DNA from: Wuchereria bancrofti
Taxonomy: Eukaryota > Nematoda > Chromadorea > Rhabditida > Onchocercidae
DNA: 64,000 bases
Direction: 5' to 3'
NCBI GenBank assembly: GCA_005281725.1
Contig: SSBO01000012.1
Span: 20,349,060 to 20,413,059 of the forward strand
A program made the translations under genes and the position numbers. A model generated the notes under the pieces. The model saw only the letters and a list, made by a program, of their open reading frames with translations, ran no database searches and was not told where the DNA came from. Position 1 is the first letter of the stretch. Each line of letters begins with the position of its first letter. Positions 5,981-37,129 of this stretch are shown here, in pieces.

Positions 5981-6845
5981 ATGCGTCTACTCATATCAGC
6001 ATCCTCATCAAGTGCTTCATCCGGTTCCGAATCCGATAGCAGTGGACAAATTCGTATCGGTCGAATTAAAAAGGCATCGTATGAACAGCGTCAACGATAT
6101 CAGCTGATGAAGAGACTACGAACAATGGTACCTAATGCTCAAAGTGCTACTACACAACTTGAATTGTTGCAGTATATCATCGATTATATTACCGATTTAC
6201 AGGTTAACAATTTGCATTTATCCATTTTTACTCAAAATTAATTCCTGTAAGATGTTTACTTTTTAACAATAAAACGGAAAGATATAAATGATAAGGTAGA
6301 AAAAAAAAGGGAAATTAATGAGAAATGAAAAAATTTTCTCTTTCCCAAAATTTTGATATTCTGGAAATGGAAATGAAGTATTGATGGATGAAAGGAAAAT
6401 TTATTAGTGAAAATTAAATGTGAGCTGTTTATAAATATACTTTCATTTATATTAATAAGTTATATATTGTTATAATAAATTAAATACTTTATATATTATA
6501 TTGTCCTGTACTTTACATATATATTGACTTGTCAAAGTATGTCAAAAATTGTCAAAATATTGTCATGTCAAGCTGTTAAAATAAATATATCTCAAAATTT
6601 TTATTTATTTGCAGCAAATTGTGAATGATAACGATGACGATAATGTTAATGATAATAATGATAGTGGTATTGATAATAGAGCGATATCAACTGCTGCTGC
6701 TGCTGCTGCTTCTGCTATATCATTCAAGCAAAATCCAACAATCACTGATTTATCGCTTTTATTCTCCAAGATTAATACTACAATCAATACCACATCAATC
6801 AGTTCTATGAAATATTCCACCAGACATGAATTTCATCAACAGTAA
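5981..6845 (+). CDS. Id/Emc-like helix-loop-helix protein A (2 exons, 150 aa)
   Basis: Exons 5981-6202 and 6615-6845 (donor CAG|GTTAAC, acceptor TTTGCAG|CAA) join in phase 0 to 150 residues. Residues 1-22 are Ser-rich. Residues ~36-74 form an HLH: helix 1 ends LRTMVP, a short loop follows, and helix 2 contains ELLQYIIDYITDLQ, very close to the Id consensus EILQHVIDYILDLQ. The region before helix 1 (KKASYEQRQRY) lacks the Glu and Arg pattern that bHLH factors use to bind E-boxes, so I read it as a non-DNA-binding HLH. Such proteins sequester bHLH partners in the nucleus. The loop is about two residues shorter than in vertebrate Id. Exon 2 encodes an Asn/Asp-rich stretch, six alanines and a Ser/Thr-rich tail. 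The intron falls exactly after helix 2, as in HLH gene B, which suggests tandem duplication. The HLH assignment is firm; Id-class rather than another HLH family is probable. Confidence 0.85.
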
Positions 6846-10886: not shown

Positions 10887-10958
10887 GGTCTTGTGGTGTA
10901 GTGGCTATCACGTCTGCTTCACACGCAGAAGGACGCCGGTTCGAACCCGGCCAAGACC
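10887..10958 (+). tRNA. tRNA-Val (anticodon CAC)
   Basis: 72 nt folding as a cloverleaf. The acceptor stem pairs GGTCTTG with CAAGACC. The anticodon stem pairs TCTGC with GCAGA around the loop TTCACAC, giving anticodon CAC (Val, GTG codons). The T arm pairs GCCGG with CCGGC around TTCGAAC. The internal promoter B box GGTTCGAACC is perfect and an A box lies in the D arm. There is no intron and no encoded CCA, as expected for a eukaryotic nuclear tRNA. It stands alone between the HLH genes. A TTTT Pol III stop follows at 10982. Confidence 0.96.
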
Positions 10959-10981
10959 TGATGATTGGAGGCATCCTTCCG

Positions 10982-25687: not shown

Positions 25688-28600
25688 ATGGAAAGGAAGA
25701 TGATTGTATTATTTTTTATTATATCTACGCTCTTATGTGATCCAATTAAACTTGGCATTCTGGAAAGTGATCAAAATCTTGTACATATATGCAAAATGGC
25801 CATAGAGGATGGTCAAAATGCTGGACATTGCACTGCTAATATCATCCAGTACACTTATATAAACTTTCTACTATTTCTCACACTAATTAGTATTAAAAAT
25901 TGGATGGAAAAAAAATTGCTACAAACAATCAAAATAAGAAACAAAAATATCAACATAAGTCGAAATTATTATTATGCCTTACATGCTTAATGCTGTAAAT
26001 TTTGAAAATTCATAAAAAAAAAGATCTATGAAATTATAATTTTTTATCCAACAAATATTTCTTATCTGTAAATATTGTTTAATGATGGCGGAATATTCCA
26101 AACTGATTTTTTATGGCATATTGTCAAAGTTTTTTAAAAAAGTTTGAATAAATAGTAATTTAGGATACAAGATGCTGCGACATGTATGATAAATAATCCG
26201 GCAAAGGGTACAGCTAATGCTATAGCTTTTCACTTTCAGGAACACGTAGAGGTTGTCATTTGTGCATTTGTTGATATTTATGATCGTTCCGTTAAAATTT
26301 AAATATAATTTTAGCAATACAATTTTAAGGCATTCATTAATTCGAGATGTGAAAGTGAAATATTAGAAATAGCTGGCTTAGCTCGTTTCTGGAATTCTCC
26401 AGTTATGATACGAGCTGTTGCAAATCCCATTATCAGTGATCAGGATGTATATCCCACCGTTGTGCAATTTGGTCGAACATCTGCGCTTGATTTCACATAT
26501 GCTATAAAATCACTTATTGATTACCTCAATATTACTTCGGTACAACATTGTTTTTTTTTTTTTGTTTAATTTATTTTATTTATTTATCATTTCTTTCTCT
26601 CTACAAGTTACTCTTGTATATAAGTCTTAAATTAAAGATAAAAAAATTTCCAAAGAAAGTCTGAATTTAATCTATTGCATCTAAAATTGAATCTTCTGAT
26701 ATTTGTTACATAAAAAATTTCAAATCAAATCTTTTTTACTTGCAATTTAATTTAACATAATCAGAATGCATTGATTTGCTGTTTTTTTGTGCTTTCTTTT
26801 TGCTTGAATTTAGTTTCATCTAGTTTACTTTACTTTCGTCTATTCTGTTTATTTTATCATAATCAATTTAACTTTTTAATTTTAGTTTAACTTTGTGCAT
26901 TAGAGCTAATTTCAAGTAGTTATTTGATATAAATTACTATTTGACAGAAAAAGTGAAAGAGTATAAATCTTCCAGGTAGTTTTGGTGAGTTCTACTGAAA
27001 GCAGCTTTGATCATTACTCCATTGTAGCTGGAATCGAACAAACTGCAAAACAACAACGATCATTTCGCATAGACAAATTCATTGAAATTAATGAATATAT
27101 GCTGAGAGAAAATAAAATTATTGCAGAAAAACTTAGGACAACCACAAGTAGTAAGTACTTTCGTTATCATATCAAGAAATATTCAACGACAGTAATAATG
27201 GAATTCCTCAGTGAAATTTAATAAATCATTTGAAAAACATTCAAAAATAACAGCGAATTTTCTATATATCCTAATATTTTTACTTATAATACAACTTTTT
27301 TCATACCATACAGACCTAACTTTCCACCAGAAAGTCTTCCTTTTCTCATACGGATGATAAGTTACATTGTCACTTTAAATCTTGCCATTTCATTTCGTTT
27401 TTGTTTATTTATTATTTGTTTATCGTTAATTAGATTAGTAGTAATTTGAAAGATTCAATTTAATTGGTGAAAATCTCTCAACTTTTTGCAATCCTATAAA
27501 TTAGTATTTTTTTCAGGTTGCTTTTTTGTTTGATGAAAAACATTGAAATTTGAAGCATTAAACATTCAAAAAAAGTATAACTGTTTCAGCAATCATTATC
27601 GGCGATGATTTCAACGATCTTGGAATGGTTCTTCGTAATCTGGAAGTGATTTCACTCAGCGACGATCATTATATGATAATTTTGATATGCAATCAAATTA
27701 GTGAAATATGTACAAACTCAATTAAACATATTGTCGCTGATGCTAGTATCATTATTGTAAGCTTAAAGACAACTTTTATCAGTAATGGACCATTTTTTTT
27801 TAATGTTCAAACTGATTTGAGATTTCGATAAATACTGTATTGGCAGCAATGGTTTTTTTTTTACCAATAATTTTCAGTTAGCTCCAATAATTGAACAATA
27901 CAAAGTGATGGCCAATAAGCTTAGCGAACGACTCAATTTCACAATAAAAGAGGTACAATTTCACAATAAAAGAGTGAATGATATCAATTAATAAGGAAAG
28001 CGGAAAATGGAATAGAATACGGTAGAATGGCTATGGTAATTGTTTTTTGGAGACTGATGCCGTAGTACATTGTATATTTGAACTTTTTAAAAACTATTTT
28101 AATGATATCAATCATACATGAATGCCTGATAGTTGACACTCAACACTATGATACTGTGGATATCAGATACTGTAGTTCTACCGTTTCTTAAAACTTCATA
28201 GAAGGAAATAGAAATGTATGTGACAATGTATGATGCGTGTTATGGTTTCTGTTTTGGTACACGACATAGTTCAATTCTGAATGGCAAGAAATTTGCTCAA
28301 TCTATGAGAAATCAGCATTTCACTGGTTTGTAAAACATTTTCATCTTCCGGTTTTAATTTTTGATTATTCATGCAGGTAAGATCAAATTTTTTTAAGTAT
28401 GATTACGTACTTATCTGTATTATAATTAATTGCTGCTAATAACTATCAATTAATTCAGGGAAGATTATTTAGGTGATTTAAAAATTTTCAATTCAAGATT
28501 TGTATTATTACCAAATTGTCTATTTGAAAGTGAAATTATTTTACATTTTTGTAGATATATTTGGGAATGTCACGTTAGATGGAACAGGAAAACGTTTACA

Positions 28601-31600
28601 AAATTATGCATTTCAATGGCTGCCATCAAGAAATGATGAATTTCAAAGGGTTATGACACTATTAATGATTGAAGCGCAATGTACATATGGAAACAAATGC
28701 TTTGATTTGGTAACAGCGCTTTTTTTTTTGATTATTTTAAGCTTCTTACACTTATTTTGCAATAATTAAAAATAACAAATTTGCTTAGGAATCAGTAAAA
28801 TTGCATGTCAGATACAATAAGTATCAAAGAATGCCAATCTTTATCAACTATTTGATAAAACTATTGTCCATTTGAATTTCTTTTTTTAATTTTATAATTA
28901 AATTTATCTATTTGCTTTATTGTTTATTAAATGATGTGTAAGAAGGAAAAGAGAAAGCGTACATTGTAGGAAGTACAAAATACAAATGACGAATTCTGGA
29001 ACAAATACAGAAATGTCACCATTACAAGATGCGTTAAATGCAAGCAATCATTTTTGTCTACTGTTGCCGTGGCGGTTATAAGTTGTGCTGCTGTCGTGGT
29101 GCTCTGCTTAATTGGCTTTTATTTATATAGAAAAAAGTAAATAAACAACTAATAAGTTACACTTTGAAATATATAATTCAGAAGTGTCGAAAAATTGACT
29201 TTTAAATGAAATGAGAGTGTTAATACTGCACTAATGTTGCCTATTGTTATTAACTCGAAAATTATGTAACTTTATAACATGAAAATTTTGGTATTTTAAC
29301 GTTAGGTTAAGCAAGTATTACTAAGAAATCCAAAAAGGCATTAATGAAAGCTAATATTCTGTTTAAGTTTTAAGCGCAATAAATATTAGATGAGATCTTA
29401 AGAAAAGTTTATACAGTACGTTTTTTTGACTTTTGCACTTATAGCTGGAATAGTTTCCTGAAATAATTGTTAAAATTTTTAAATTATTTTGAACTATTAC
29501 GCATTTTGCATTTTATTTAAAAATTAGCGCTTCGATTTTATAATTACGAATTACGAATTATACAGCGAATGGCAAAATTTTCAGGAAGCATATGGAAGCA
29601 TATCGAATGATGTGGAAAATTTCAAAAGAGGATTTAAAAGTTATTGAAACAAAACGGGTCAGTTAACTTTTTATATGAAAAAAAAATTTTTGCACTTATC
29701 ATATTTTATTAGCCTCACTGAAAGAGATGTGTTCATTCATTTATTTTCTTTTTCATCATTAAATTTTGTTTTAAAATTTTGAGCTAATTTTAGTCTAAAG
29801 AACATGCAATAAGCGATAACTTAAGTCATAAACGTCGACAATTGGAATCATATGCACTGGTTGGTACTTTAAAAGCTGAATTTATATGTTTCAAACAGTA
29901 TAAACGAATTCCATGGAATAAGGCGCAATTGAAATTCCTTTATGAATTGAAATCATTGAATCACAACAATTTAACAAATTTTATTGGAATTTGCTACAAT
30001 GATTTGGATCGTTTTTACGTATTACATACACTAATCGAACGTGCATCGCTAGAAGACTTTATCTATGATCATCAATTCAACGTGGATAATACATTCAAGT
30101 GTGCATTTATCAGAGATATCTTAAAGGTATTATCAGTATTATCATTTAACAATAATTTTTATCAGTGTATACATACCAATAAGGTATTGATTATCCTAAA
30201 ACAAAACATAAAGATCATCCTAGATTAAAGTAATAAAAATAACGACTTCTAAGTTAAACACAACAAATATAAAAATAGTGAGAGAAAAAAACAACAAGTA
30301 TGGAAGGAGTAAAAAATTATTTCAAAATAAATTATCACATTTTTGACTTTGAAATTAATCATATATTGCAGGGATTGAACTAATACTTTTCTCTTCAGGG
30401 ATTACAATATTTGCATAAGTCATCGATTGGATATCACGGAATGTTATCATTAAAAACGTGTATGATTGATACGAATTGGGTTCTTAAATTAACAAATTTT
30501 GGAATTTCAACTATGCTGAATGAATTAATTGATCAAAATTATATACGTACTGTAGAATTGATTCCTCAACAATGTTAGTCATTTTTTTAAGGTATGAAAA
30601 ATTAAACAAACAATAGATAGAGTGAGTCAACAAATTATGATTGATATGACAGTCAATAAATTATGATTAATAGGACACCTATGTCAGTAGCATTATGTAT
30701 GTGAATTAAATATGATCAAATTTTAATAATCTGAAAAATATTCAAATAGACTTTTACAAATTTTATGCTTTTTGTTTTTAGTTTACATCACAGTTGCACC
30801 GGAATTATTAACTGGTATTCAAATTGGATGGAACTTTCCAAAAGGAACCGTTGTTGGAGATATATATAGCTTCGGAATGATGCTTTATTCAATTATTTTT
30901 CGAATTAAACCATTTGATCGACTTTCACTAAAAGGTTTTAATAAAGATTAGAAGGAAAAAATAATCCTTCGTTTTTGATTCACTAAAAAATCTTAGAAAG
31001 TGTCCGAAAAAAGAAATGAGCCATTCTTACAAAAGAAAAATAGCTTGCAGAAGTGCTTCATAATGTTGTTGAAAAATCATTGCGACCACAGATTGATAAT
31101 GATAACAGCGATCCGGTTAGTCTCAAATGAATAATTATTCGTTTTTCTTTTTTCTCTTTTTACTACCATTTAATTCAAATATTCAAAATTGAATGAAAAA
31201 AAAAGAAAACTTCGACCTATGTTTAATAGTCAGAAATATCATTAAGCTTAGTTTTTATTTTGTAAAGCAAGTGGGAGAAATTTTAAAATGAAAACATTTT
31301 GCAGTTAATTACATTAATGTGCGAATGCTGGAATTCAGTGCCAGAAGAACGACCGAAACTTGAAAATATTCGTCAAACTATTCGAACAATTTTCTCAAAT
31401 TCGTAGATTTTTAGCAAATTTGTTATAAAATCATATTTGTCATTTCAGAAATACGGCAAATAATTGCTATAGGAAGAATATATGCTCAACAAATAAACCA
31501 AAAGATTTTACTTATCTTAAAAATTTTCATTCGTTTTTTAAGTGCATCGACATTTCTTTAAAGTATATTAACAACAAAAAAGTTTTTTAAATATATTAAC

Positions 31601-33324
31601 ATTTAAGTGTCACTTTAAGTTATTTTTGACATTCCCTTCTTATTTTTAAATTTTCGAAGTTTATGTTACTTTAAATAGCTTAATCAAATTAACTAAAACT
31701 AATTTTTGTGTGTTTTTTTTTTCATCTTTTACTTCATAACTTTTTAAGAAAAGGTAACCTGGTTGATCAAATGATTAAAATGAACGAGAAATATGCACAA
31801 GAATTAGAACATATCGTTGCGGAACGAACTTCACTTTTAGTTGAAGCACAAGAACAAACTGATCGTTTACTTTGCGAAATGCTACCACCGTTTGTTTTTT
31901 TTTTCTAGTTTTTTAAATCATTTTATTATACAATGTAAAATAATTTTAAAAAGGCTTATCACCTTTTTTTCTTTTGCAAAAAAAAAAGGAAAGTTTTACG
32001 AATTAACTTTTAAGATTAAATTATATTGCATGAAAGTTTTAATTGACAATATTGTTAGATCTATAGCAGCGCAACTCAAAGCAGGCGAAACAATCATTCC
32101 ACGAAATTATGAATCAGTTACAGTTGGATTCTGTCAAATTGTTGAATTTATGTATTTGATGGAGCATTGCACACCTGCGCAAGTCTGTAATATTTCTCAG
32201 TTATTGATAATGTCCGAGATTATTACCTAATGGAGTTAATAAAATTTATTACTTTTTTTCTTAAATTTTCAACAAGCAATGGACTTCGACTGCGATACGT
32301 TTTCAAATGTCATATTTTATTTTCAAATAAAGTTTAGCCATTACAATACTAGCAATTAGTAAAAATTAATTTAAAATATTATTTCATATATAGTTAAGTA
32401 GGCCTAATCATTGTTGGATTTCTATTTCTCTTCAATAAAATGTGGAATGATTGAGAGCCGGGAAAATTTAATCTTTTGTGATATCATCATTTAGGTCATT
32501 TCCTTTTTAAATGAAGCCTTCATGACTTTCGATGAAATAATCAAATGTCACGATGCTTATAAAGTTGAAACGACAGGTGAAACATACATGATGGCATCAG
32601 GAGTACCAAGTGAAAATGGTGGTCGGCATATTTTTGAAATTGCTGAAATTGCACTTAAAATACGGGAGGTAATCATTTTTACACTCAAAAAAACTAAGCA
32701 CATTTCCGCCACTGACTATGTATGACCAAACTAACATCATATCAAATAATTTATGGTAATATTATGTAAAGTTGATAATTTCAATAATTCAATATAAATT
32801 GCAGAAAACTCTCGCTTATAAGGTCACTGCCGCCCCAAACTGGCATCTTCGTGTTCGTATCGGTTTTCATTGTGGACCTATCGCTGCTGGTGTTATCGGT
32901 TTACGGTCACCAAGATACTGTTTATTTGGTGATACGGTACATTTTTCGAAAAAAAAAAAAGATCAACTTCATTTATGTAAATTTGCTACATTTTTAACAT
33001 CTTAAAATAAAAATTTTAAACTTAAACATACGGGAAACTTTTTTTTATAGGTAAATTTTGCCTCTCGAATGCAAAGTAACTGTGAAGCTAATCAAATACA
33101 AGTAGCTGAAAGTACAGCAAAAATTTTAATGGAAAATTCCAAATATAATCTTACAAAACGTGGAGTAGTACACGTAAAAGGCAAAGGTTATTTATTTAAT
33201 TATTATTATTTTTTTTAACTTGGAGAATATATTTTATAAAGAAGCACTAAAATACTGAATTAATATTGCAGGAGATGTGAACACTTATTGGTTAAATGAA
33301 CTAATCCTAAATAAACAACAATAA
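25688..33324 (+). CDS. receptor-type guanylyl cyclase (gcy family), metal-site residues replaced; 21 exons, 995 aa
   Basis: Exons: 25688-25848, 26164-26245, 26315-26539, 26976-27150, 27590-27756, 27878-27952, 28202-28325, 28555-28709, 28970-29136, 29585-29657, 29794-30126, 30399-30573, 30782-30934, 31051-31115, 31305-31402, 31749-31889, 32059-32182, 32495-32668, 32805-32936, 33051-33186, 33272-33324. All join in phase. Domains: signal peptide ~1-17; extracellular ANF-receptor-like ligand-binding region to ~410; membrane helix ~416-440; kinase-homology domain ~488-735 (HGML, then NFG in place of DFG, VAPELL); coiled-coil linker ~743-787; cyclase domain ~791-980. The family converts GTP to cGMP at sensory membranes. 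Guanine-selecting Glu856 and Cys928 and catalytic Asn935 and Arg939 are kept. The two metal-binding Asp are Gln816 (FCQIVEF) and Glu860 (GETYMM), so activity may be lost or altered. The frame is intact throughout, so it is not an obvious pseudogene. Least certain joins: exon 1 donor and exon 13/14. Confidence 0.9.
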
Positions 33325-34525: not shown

Positions 34526-37129
34526 TCAACTTACAAATTTTTCAGCAATGGATGTAGCAGATTTCTTTGAGCTTTTAATAGAATCAACGGGTTTTTTAAG
34601 TGTTTGTCGTTGAAATCTTAAAGCTGCATAGTAACCATCACGAATTGAGGTAAACATAAGCGATGTTAACTGTGACCATGCCATAACTGTTTCCGTTGGC
34701 TAAAATTATAAATTCAACATTTAAATTATGCGAAATTTAATAATACCTATTGTTACCTTGAAAATATGCCATTTAAAATTCATTTCAAATTCATCGTATT
34801 CGTAAATTAGACAGTATATAATATAATCAGATATCAGAATATTAGCTTTGGCTAAAACAGGCTAATTGAGGAACGAATTATTAATTAGAAACTAATTATT
34901 AATTACTTGATGATTAGCCATATCTAATATAACACATTCAACTGCCATTGCATCAGCTATGCTAACCCAAAAATCAGGCTTAAATCCATATTTTTTCAGT
35001 GGTACATGTCTTTCACCATAGTGTCGTGACATTTCTTCCACTGCTGATACATTGTGAACCTAAAATAAAGCTTAAATTTATACTTCATCAACTTTTCATT
35101 GATATTCAACTATTACCTGTAATCTCGATAACACTGTTCAACTATTACCTGTAATCTCGATAAAACTGTTCAACTATTACCTGTAACCTCGATAACACTG
35201 TTCAACTATGGCTATTATAATCATGCATGTGCTATTGAATTATCACTCATAATGATATTATTCAATTATTATTTATAATATTGATAATATAATTATCACT
35301 TGTAATCTTGGTAATGCTGTTCATAGTTTAATAATTATTTGAAATTTACTGAGTTATCAGTTCAGTTAAGATTATTCTATTTGGTATGACTCACCTTACT
35401 TACAACATTATTCAAGTAATCACGGAGTTCAACAGAAGCACTTAACCATCTTTCCCTTCCCAGAGCATATACAAATCTGCAAAATATAACATTCCAAGTT
35501 TAATTTCATCTAATTCTATTCAATATTACCTTAATTTTCAGTTAAAATGAATTGAAATAAATTTCTTCCAGTTATTTCCTACATTATTTGCATCTCTGAT
35601 ATATAATTTAACATTTTTCATGAAATACATTTTCGACAAAATAACTTTGATATTCGAAATCAATACTTTCTTTTTTTAATTTACATATTTATTAAAATGA
35701 AACCTTTGATAATCAGTACGCTTTTCAAAAACTCGCATGCAAATACGATAACCAATTTCGTTGTGATGATTGCCGAAACAAGCTTGAATAATTTCACGTC
35801 CTTGGGGTGAAATTGGATGAGTTCCACGATAATCAGAATTATTATTACGAAAGTATTGACGTGATTCGTTGAGATTTGATGACCTGAATAATATTTTTCT
35901 TATATAATAAACAATAAAGAATTTTTCATTAATTGTTTTGGAACTGTTTGTGAAAAAAAAATTTGCATTTAAAAAAATTCAATGAAATCAAAAAGTCAAT
36001 TTCTAATTCCATTAAATTTTTTTTTTTGGAACTAAAAAACAACTTTTTTAGAAATAATATAGAATACATCGATTTTTATTAAGTTTAATCAGAAATAAAA
36101 ATGATCGAAATAGAAGAGAATCTTTATCATAAATAGATATGAAATAAATAAATAAATAAATAAATAAATAAATGTATATATTTTATTATTATTACTGTTT
36201 ATTATGATTAATTCTTCTTATTATTATTAATTTGTTTTTGCTATTGCAATAAAAACATTGTTTTTTGATTTTTTTTTAAAATACTTTTATACTTTGAAAA
36301 TGAAATGTGAGGACAAAAATATTTCACTGAGTTTATGATTCCTACCAATTCCATTATTTCAGTTACGTTATCATTTTTTTCTATTTACAAACAAATATTT
36401 CATTGATTGCACAAAATTAACTAAAATATTTTCAATGCTATTTTTGATTTTAAATTGATTCTAAATTATCTGCGAGGCTAAGGCTCGATAAGACTGGACC
36501 ACGTTATCTTTCTCCAGGATATCTCGATGTTCCTGCATGCTATTTGAGAGCATTACTTGTTAGCTTAAAGCTCGTTGCATGCTAATGAGATTTCTATCTA
36601 TCCGCAGTAAATCTGCCGGTAATCTCAATCTCAATTTGATTTTATTATCTGATTTAAAAAAAAAAAATTATCGAGATATTCTGGAGTTATAAAAATTTTT
36701 ATTTATGAACCTGATTCGAGTTAACGATTGATTACGCTTTGCGACACTTCCAGTATTTTTTCGTTGACCACTCGAATTATCACATTTCATTTCATCCACT
36801 AATTTTGGTCGTATAAAAAGTTGCGTATCACTTTCTGAATTTGATTTCCATCTCTTACCATTTACACTTTGTGTGCTTATCTTATGATTTTTGATCACTT
36901 TATCATTTTTATCATAAGATAAATTTGATTTTAGCCTTTCCGGAAATAATTCTTGAACGGTTGACATTTGCTGTTGATTTGGAATATATTTGCCACATTT
37001 CACACTAATCTGACATTTCGCTACTTTCCGGGAAGAATCAGGCATTTTCCGGGAAGCACCACCAGTACGATTATTCAATTTATCGATAATTGCTTTCTTC
37101 CTTTTATTCCATGAAATATGATTACCCAT
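34526..37129 (-). CDS. globin with N-myristoylation start and long N-terminal extension (5 exons, 335 aa)
   Basis: Exons in coding order: 37129-36711, 35883-35704, 35476-35395, 35059-34907, 34699-34526, all joining in phase to 335 residues. The start is the ATG at 37129 (MGNHIS), 9 nt after a possible AG acceptor; upstream frame uses only TTG. MGNHIS fits the N-myristoyltransferase pattern (Gly2, Ser6), so membrane anchoring is likely. Residues ~2-150 are basic, polar and low in hydrophobics (predicted disordered). The globin fold spans ~165-310: A helix GREIIQACF, B helix IGYRICMRVFEK, CD1 Phe201, proximal F8 His245 (GERHVPLKKYGF), then G and H helices. By spacing, the distal E7 position falls at ~216-217 (Glu/Leu), so a His or Gln there is not evident. 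Nematodes have many such globins, several neuronal and some acylated; O2/NO sensing or redox roles are typical rather than O2 storage. Ligand is unknown. No one-to-one C. elegans orthologue claimed. Confidence 0.85.
35104..35210 (+). repeat. 32-bp tandem repeat (3.3 copies) in globin intron 3
   Basis: Units 35104-35135, 35136-35167 and 35168-35199, plus a partial copy to 35210; core TTCAACTATTACCTGTAA. Near-identical copies imply recent expansion. Read on the globin's own strand each unit contains CAGGTAAT, a good match to a 5' splice site. Confidence 0.9.

What the first reader, a model, noticed from the sequence alone, without database searches (positions are those of the whole stretch)
32059..32668. 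Guanylyl cyclase with both catalytic metal-binding aspartates replaced
The cyclase domain reads FCQIVEF where class III cyclases have F(S/A)DI.GFT, and GETYMM where they have GDAYM. The two metal-binding Asp are therefore Gln816 and Glu860. The guanine-recognition Glu (KVET) and Cys (RYCLFGDT), the catalytic Asn and Arg (VNFASRM), the kinase-homology domain, the coiled coil and the reading frame of all 21 exons are intact. That pattern suggests selection for a non-cyclising or regulatory partner (a heterodimer subunit or cGMP-independent receptor) rather than decay. In two-metal cyclases, loss of either Asp normally abolishes activity.
Basis: partly seen in the sequence, partly recalled or inferred. 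Interest (0 to 1): 0.82.

Follow-up and report, generated by a model that had tools for sequence, protein, structure and literature searches.

The report
Half-enzyme sensory receptor missing its partner
The gene is the filarial-worm version of ODR-1, a known nematode smell-pathway receptor that is only half of a cGMP-making enzyme, and in this worm the gene for its usual other half, DAF-11, appears to be broken.

Summary
A 21-exon gene (25688-33324, +) encodes a receptor guanylyl cyclase with Gln813 and Glu857 where class III cyclases carry the two metal-binding Asp; the purine Glu853 and Cys925 and the catalytic Asn932 and Arg936 are kept. It is not decay. It is the ODR-1/GCY-27 orthologue of a filarial worm, by sequence Wuchereria bancrofti. 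Of 52 clade members counted, 52 have Gln and 49 Glu (3 have Asp); Plectus has both. In C. elegans ODR-1 is already described as one half of an obligate heterodimer with DAF-11 (passages of PMC5225109, PMC8045692). DAF-11 relatives show the complementary pattern: both Asp kept, Asn and Arg lost. New: the one DAF-11 locus found in this genome, 1.7 Mb away, has three in-frame stops and two frame changes, while four relatives' proteins run through the cyclase domain. ODR-1 itself shows no sign of relaxation. Either ODR-1 pairs with another receptor cyclase, or the loss is too recent to show. That the break is in the species rests on one assembly and one public gene model.

The parts
25688..33324 (+). 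odr-1/gcy-27-type receptor guanylyl cyclase gene, 21 exons, 992 aa
   Evidence: exon model, GT-AG introns, open frame; Pfam ANF_receptor, kinase and Guanylate_cyc domains; clade support 100
25688..28709 (+). exons 1-8, hydrophobic N-terminus (read by eye) and extracellular ANF_receptor-like domain
   Evidence: exon 3 starts at 26330 by comparison with B. malayi P0121
28970..29136 (+). exon 9, end of extracellular part and hydrophobic transmembrane-like stretch (left out of gene models P0121 and P0122)
   Evidence: a like segment is in Dirofilaria P0132
29585..31402 (+). exons 10-15, juxtamembrane part and kinase-homology domain
   Evidence: Pfam PF07714, 1.5e-27
31749..31889 (+). exon 16, dimerisation (coiled-coil) region ahead of the cyclase domain
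   Evidence: aligned with the same region of ANP receptor 1; coiled coil not tested separately
32059..33324 (+). exons 17-21, cyclase domain (PF00211)
   Evidence: 1.2e-55
32135..32137 (+). Gln813 codon (CAA) at the first metal-binding Asp site
   Evidence: Gln in 52 of 52 clade rows
32579..32581 (+). Glu857 codon (GAA) at the second metal-binding Asp site
   Evidence: Glu in 49 and Asp in 3 of 52 clade rows
32567..32569 (+). Glu853, purine-recognition Glu, kept
   Evidence: 52 of 52
32919..32921 (+). Cys925, purine-recognition Cys, kept
   Evidence: 52 of 52
33054..33056 (+). Asn932, catalytic Asn, kept
   Evidence: 52 of 52
33066..33068 (+). Arg936, catalytic Arg, kept
   Evidence: 52 of 52

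Best explanation
The gene is the W. bancrofti orthologue of C. elegans ODR-1/GCY-27. Its cyclase domain is a C2-type half-site: it supplies guanine recognition (Glu, Cys) and the transition-state Asn and Arg, but lacks the two Asp that hold the catalytic Mg ions. It is expected to make cGMP only in a heterodimer with a partner that brings the two Asp, classically DAF-11, feeding cGMP-gated channels in sensory neurons. Shown here: the sequence, the orthology, the conservation and the mirror-image residues of DAF-11. Inferred: heterodimer assembly, cGMP production and neuronal role, carried over from C. elegans. In this worm the DAF-11 gene is broken, so any cGMP production by ODR-1 would need another partner, most simply one of the four receptor cyclases with a complete set of residues.
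For: Groups with C. elegans ODR-1 and GCY-27: 26 of 26 rows on one side of a branch, support 100. Gln/Glu conserved, in both C. elegans proteins and Plectus too. DAF-11 group, 26 rows counted: Asp at both metal sites in 24 of 24 rows read, Asn in 0 of 23, Arg in 0 of 22. Adenylyl cyclase 5 shows the same division of labour: C2 half FASIANF and GSTYM, C1 half FADIEGF and VTLANHM. Reviews: ODR-1/DAF-11 called an obligate heterodimer (passages); GCY-14 extracellular-domain fusions restored the response only with both intracellular domains (passages). Broken DAF-11 locus.
Against: No biochemistry and no expression data. PMC8045692 (passages) says that formal proof of heterodimers in native cells is awaited, gives hints of separate roles of ODR-1 and DAF-11, and thinks GCY-27 and DAF-11 unlikely to act as heteromers in the nitric-oxide response of ASJ, although PMC6066330 (passages) finds both needed there. 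In this genome the classical partner is broken, so the classical pair cannot be assumed. No nucleotide dN/dS was computed: I held no coding DNA of a relative.
Confidence: 0.85

Rival explanations
1. W. bancrofti ODR-1 is already functionless: with DAF-11 gone it is an intact-looking gene on its way to decay, and the loss is too recent to have left marks.
For: DAF-11 is the described partner and is broken. In the DAF-11 kinase/coiled-coil part there is no excess of changes (6 Wb-lineage against 10 Loa-specific in 341 sites), which suggests a recent loss.
Against: No stop, frame change or splice lesion in ODR-1; 12 Wb-specific against 14 Bm-specific changes in 911 sites, and 0 against 1 in coiled coil plus cyclase; no departure at 131 highly conserved sites. 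These fit continued constraint but have little power if the loss is recent.
Confidence: 0.35
2. ODR-1 acts as a receptor or scaffold without cyclase activity.
For: It lacks the metal site. C. elegans data hint at DAF-11-independent aspects of ODR-1 (passages of PMC8045692).
Against: Glu, Cys, Asn and Arg of the active site are kept in 52 of 52 clade rows counted (one dropped row, P0154, has Ser for Asn), which a non-enzyme would have no need to keep.
Confidence: 0.08
3. The substitutions are decay or a sequencing error in this gene.
For: In this genome a related gene, DAF-11, is broken.
Against: The same residues in B. malayi, W. bancrofti P0122, Loa P0124, Ascaris P0129, C. elegans and Plectus.
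Confidence: 0.01

Closest known systems
C. elegans ODR-1 (GCY-10) and GCY-27
   Same: Kinase-homology and cyclase domains, Gln and Glu at the two Asp sites, kept Glu/Cys/Asn/Arg; one group with support 100
   Different: C. elegans has two genes, which the tree places within Caenorhabditis; one such locus was found here. C. elegans DAF-11 is a working gene, the one found in this genome is broken
C2 half of mammalian adenylyl cyclases (for example type 5)
   Same: Works alike: no metal Asp, keeps residues that complete the partner's site (alignment; roles from established knowledge)
   Different: Ser/Ser instead of Gln/Glu, ATP rather than GTP enzyme, both halves on one chain
DAF-11
   Same: Receptor cyclase, described partner of ODR-1
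   Different: Mirror image: both Asp kept, Asn and Arg lost; separate group, support 100

Membership tests
ODR-1/GCY-27 receptor guanylyl cyclases | Extracellular domain, transmembrane helix, kinase-homology domain, coiled coil, cyclase domain | tested here: met
   Pfam hits for extracellular, kinase and cyclase domains; transmembrane and coiled-coil exons only by reading and comparison
ODR-1/GCY-27 receptor guanylyl cyclases | Phylogenetic placement with C. elegans ODR-1 and GCY-27 | tested here: met
   26 rows, one side of a branch, SH-aLRT 100, quick tree
ODR-1/GCY-27 receptor guanylyl cyclases | Gln at metal site 1, Glu (rarely Asp) at site 2, other four active-site residues kept | tested here: met
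ODR-1/GCY-27 receptor guanylyl cyclases | Expression in olfactory/pheromone sensory neurons | not testable with these tools
   no expression data held
ODR-1/DAF-11 obligate heterodimer | Intact DAF-11 gene in the same genome | tested here: not met
   the one DAF-11 locus found has in-frame stops and frame changes
ODR-1/DAF-11 obligate heterodimer | Physical pairing and shared active site | not testable with these tools
   for C. elegans from passages of reviews only
Self-sufficient homodimeric receptor guanylyl cyclases | All six residues (two Asp, Glu, Cys, Asn, Arg) in one chain | tested here: not met
   two of six replaced

The most novel reading that the evidence does not exclude
In W. bancrofti the classical ODR-1/DAF-11 enzyme has been dismantled: DAF-11 is a pseudogene while ODR-1 is kept as a working half-enzyme that has switched to another receptor cyclase as partner. 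This would be a natural partner exchange in a pair thought to be obligate, in a human filarial parasite, with no such loss seen in Loa or in the fragment of Brugia timori.
Probability: 0.35. Interest if true: 0.65.

Novelty: new member of a known kind. Interest (0 to 1): 0.45.

Why it matters
The lost-Asp observation by itself is the known ODR-1 half-site, here shown in filarial worms and as far out as Plectus. The combination with a broken DAF-11 matters more: it makes the 'obligate heterodimer' claim testable by a natural experiment, and it removes from W. [quoted passage not shown]

Tried and rejected
Decay or error of the window gene: rejected by conservation. A second, intact DAF-11 copy: not found; outside C12:18.64 Mb the best match to Loa DAF-11 is 62% identical, at other cyclase loci (which scores only the best candidates). 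Relaxation of ODR-1 in W. bancrofti: not seen. A first DAF-11 projection gave 23 Wb-specific against 15 Loa-specific changes and 13 of 183 invariant sites altered, but it ran past an exon end; the curated pieces replaced it. In one search the DAF-11 comparison (11 Wb-specific, 6 B. timori-specific in 350 sites) has the same fault: six of the 11 lie at one exon end (281-286), and one of its four stops probably comes from a read past an exon end (SIL*FSY). A stop in the extracellular part seen only in a weak match (VNN*YSS) is not counted. Nucleotide dN/dS, expression and population data were not available. Structure prediction was not run: single-chain folds would not test heterodimers. Literature: 8 of 10 searches used; 'Wuchereria' with 'daf-11' gave 1 paper, off topic by its title and abstract in the listing. 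Morton 2004 and Murayama 2013 were not seen, only cited through reviews.

Rows left out before the count, from P0121-P0180: P0122 (same gene, same species), P0154 (QE but Ser at the Asn site), P0155 and P0158 (no Guanylate_cyc domain listed), P0159 (Gln read, gaps at two sites), P0172 and P0179 (both QEECNR) and P0180 (odd row, P at site 1). In one search P0242 was left out of the counts as the model of the broken gene.

Full report
What is in the window. Every intron is GT-AG and the joined exons are open (in one search exon 21 was taken three bases too far, so it shows a second, tandem stop). Exon 3 starts at 26330 rather than 26315 as, judging from the B. malayi protein P0121; this gives 992 aa, Gln813 and Glu857. 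Pfam finds ANF_receptor, kinase and Guanylate_cyc domains. An exon with a hydrophobic, transmembrane-like stretch (28970-29136) is present in the DNA and has a counterpart in Dirofilaria P0132, although the gene models P0121 and P0122 skip it.

Which worm. The contig set has 86.5 Mb in 108 contigs and the window lies on a 24.1 Mb contig. The window protein matches W. bancrofti P0122 apart from gene-model boundaries, and B. malayi P0121 at 97%. Most pieces of the DAF-11 locus match W. bancrofti P0242 at or near 100%.

The replaced residues are ancient. In the alignment to proteins of solved structures the Gln and Glu fall on the Asp of SDI and GDAYM of ANP receptor 1 and guanylyl cyclase C (that these Asp bind the metals is established knowledge). 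In a table of 241 rows (240 held proteins and the window) the pattern Q E E C N R occurs in 58 rows, window included, against 160 rows with the complete D D E C N R; three rows (P0140-P0142: Parastrongyloides, an unnamed protein and Strongyloides) have Q with D; the other 20 rows are partial, odd or misaligned, or differ at another site. In 52 clade members, window not counted, Gln is found in 52, Glu in 49 and Asp in 3 at the second site; the other four residues are kept in 52 of 52; and the window departs from none of the 131 sites that are at least 95% one residue. Eight rows dropped before that count are listed under Tried and rejected. Both C. elegans relatives (P0161 and GCY-27, P0171) and Plectus sambesii P0157 carry Q and E.

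Name. A quick maximum-likelihood tree of 55 rows puts the window with C. elegans P0161 and GCY-27 in one group of 26 (support 100) and DAF-11 in another of 12 (support 100). I take P0161 to be ODR-1: it lies on a 17.7 Mb contig that I recall to be chromosome X, where I recall odr-1 to be; a Dirofilaria member is named gcy-10 by its source, and ODR-1 is GCY-10 (Table 1 of PMC5225109, passages). P0259 is DAF-11: it contains the flanks of the daf-11 deletion printed in PMC6066330 (passages; sequence).

How it works. Class III cyclases form their sites at the dimer face: one half brings the two Asp and the metals, the other the base-recognising and transition-state residues (established knowledge). 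The window protein has only the second set. The DAF-11 group keeps the Asp and lacks Asn and Arg: Asp in 24 of 24 rows read at each metal site, no Asn in 23 and no Arg in 22 rows read, of 26 rows counted; its Glu is kept in 24 of 24, and its Cys site reads C in 13, S in 8 and A in 2. So the complementarity is strict for the metals and for Asn/Arg, and loose for purine recognition. The adenylyl cyclase 5 alignment shows the same split between its two halves. For C. [quoted passage not shown] The finding as given is thus a new species' member of a known kind.

The partner. Searching the same genome for DAF-11 with the Loa protein gives one locus, C12:18.640-18.647 Mb, on the same contig as the window; matches elsewhere are 62% identical or less. 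The locus is broken: in-frame stops at 18640855 (TAG), 18643017 (TGA) and 18643509 (TAA), and two changes of frame inside the cyclase domain, one in the exon of the second metal site and one in the exon of the Asn/Arg site, where the spacing of conserved words differs from that of relatives by a number of bases not divisible by three. After HNHV the frame runs into stops, and the stretch that relatives read as RDIAFVAIMMRD survives only as a short out-of-frame remnant. The transmembrane exon is at best a diverged remnant. Relatives' proteins run on: Loa P0241, Acanthocheilonema P0243, Setaria P0244 and Toxocara P0247 through the cyclase domain; the B. timori fragment P0254 over the part it covers, ending before the cyclase domain. 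The public W. bancrofti model P0242 steps round the same places, so the lesions are probably in the species and not only in this assembly; whether P0242 comes from an independent assembly I cannot tell. No B. malayi DAF-11 was among the 120 listed hits (limited by length), so its state was not tested.

What ODR-1 shows after that loss. Polarised against six other filarioids, W. bancrofti ODR-1 has 12 own changes and B. malayi 14 in 911 sites (16 unresolved); in coiled coil plus cyclase 0 and 1 (4 unresolved). DAF-11 shows 8 changes on the W. bancrofti side against 3 for Loa in 185 cyclase sites, but 6 against 10 in 341 kinase/coiled-coil sites (the W. bancrofti side includes any branch shared with Brugia), so relaxation is modest and the loss looks recent. 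ODR-1 intactness therefore cannot by itself prove use after the loss. Four other receptor cyclases in the genome (loci L001, L003, L005, L017) have all six residues in the exons read and could in principle bring the metal site; their genes were not checked end to end. One match to the CNG-channel domain PF16526 (E 3.3e-7, with a stop inside the matched stretch that may be an exon end) is at least in keeping with a cGMP pathway still being there.

Novelty. 'Wuchereria' with 'daf-11' returned one paper, off topic by title and abstract, in a library of open-licence papers only. [quoted passage not shown] the part of its species list shown names Brugia malayi and Loa loa).

Noticed in passing
L031 (G000:C12:18638000-18647500): DAF-11 orthologue of this genome with in-frame stops and frame changes; the public W. 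bancrofti entry P0242 seems to be a gene model built around these lesions.
   Followed up: yes
window 28970-29136: Exon with the transmembrane-like stretch of ODR-1, left out of the public B. malayi and W. bancrofti models P0121 and P0122.
   Followed up: partly
P0140, P0141, P0142: ODR-1 relatives (Parastrongyloides, an unnamed protein, Strongyloides) with Gln at metal site 1 but Asp at site 2, so only one of the two Asp is replaced there.
   Followed up: no
window 5981-6205: Open reading frame on + with a weak HLH domain match just above Pfam's cut-off (21.1 against 20.7 bits).
   Followed up: no
window 10887-10959: tRNA-Val (CAC) gene.
   Followed up: no
window 34526-35978: Exon-like open stretches on the - strand just downstream; three pieces gave no Pfam match above cut-off; reminded me of nematode globins, from recall only.
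   Followed up: partly
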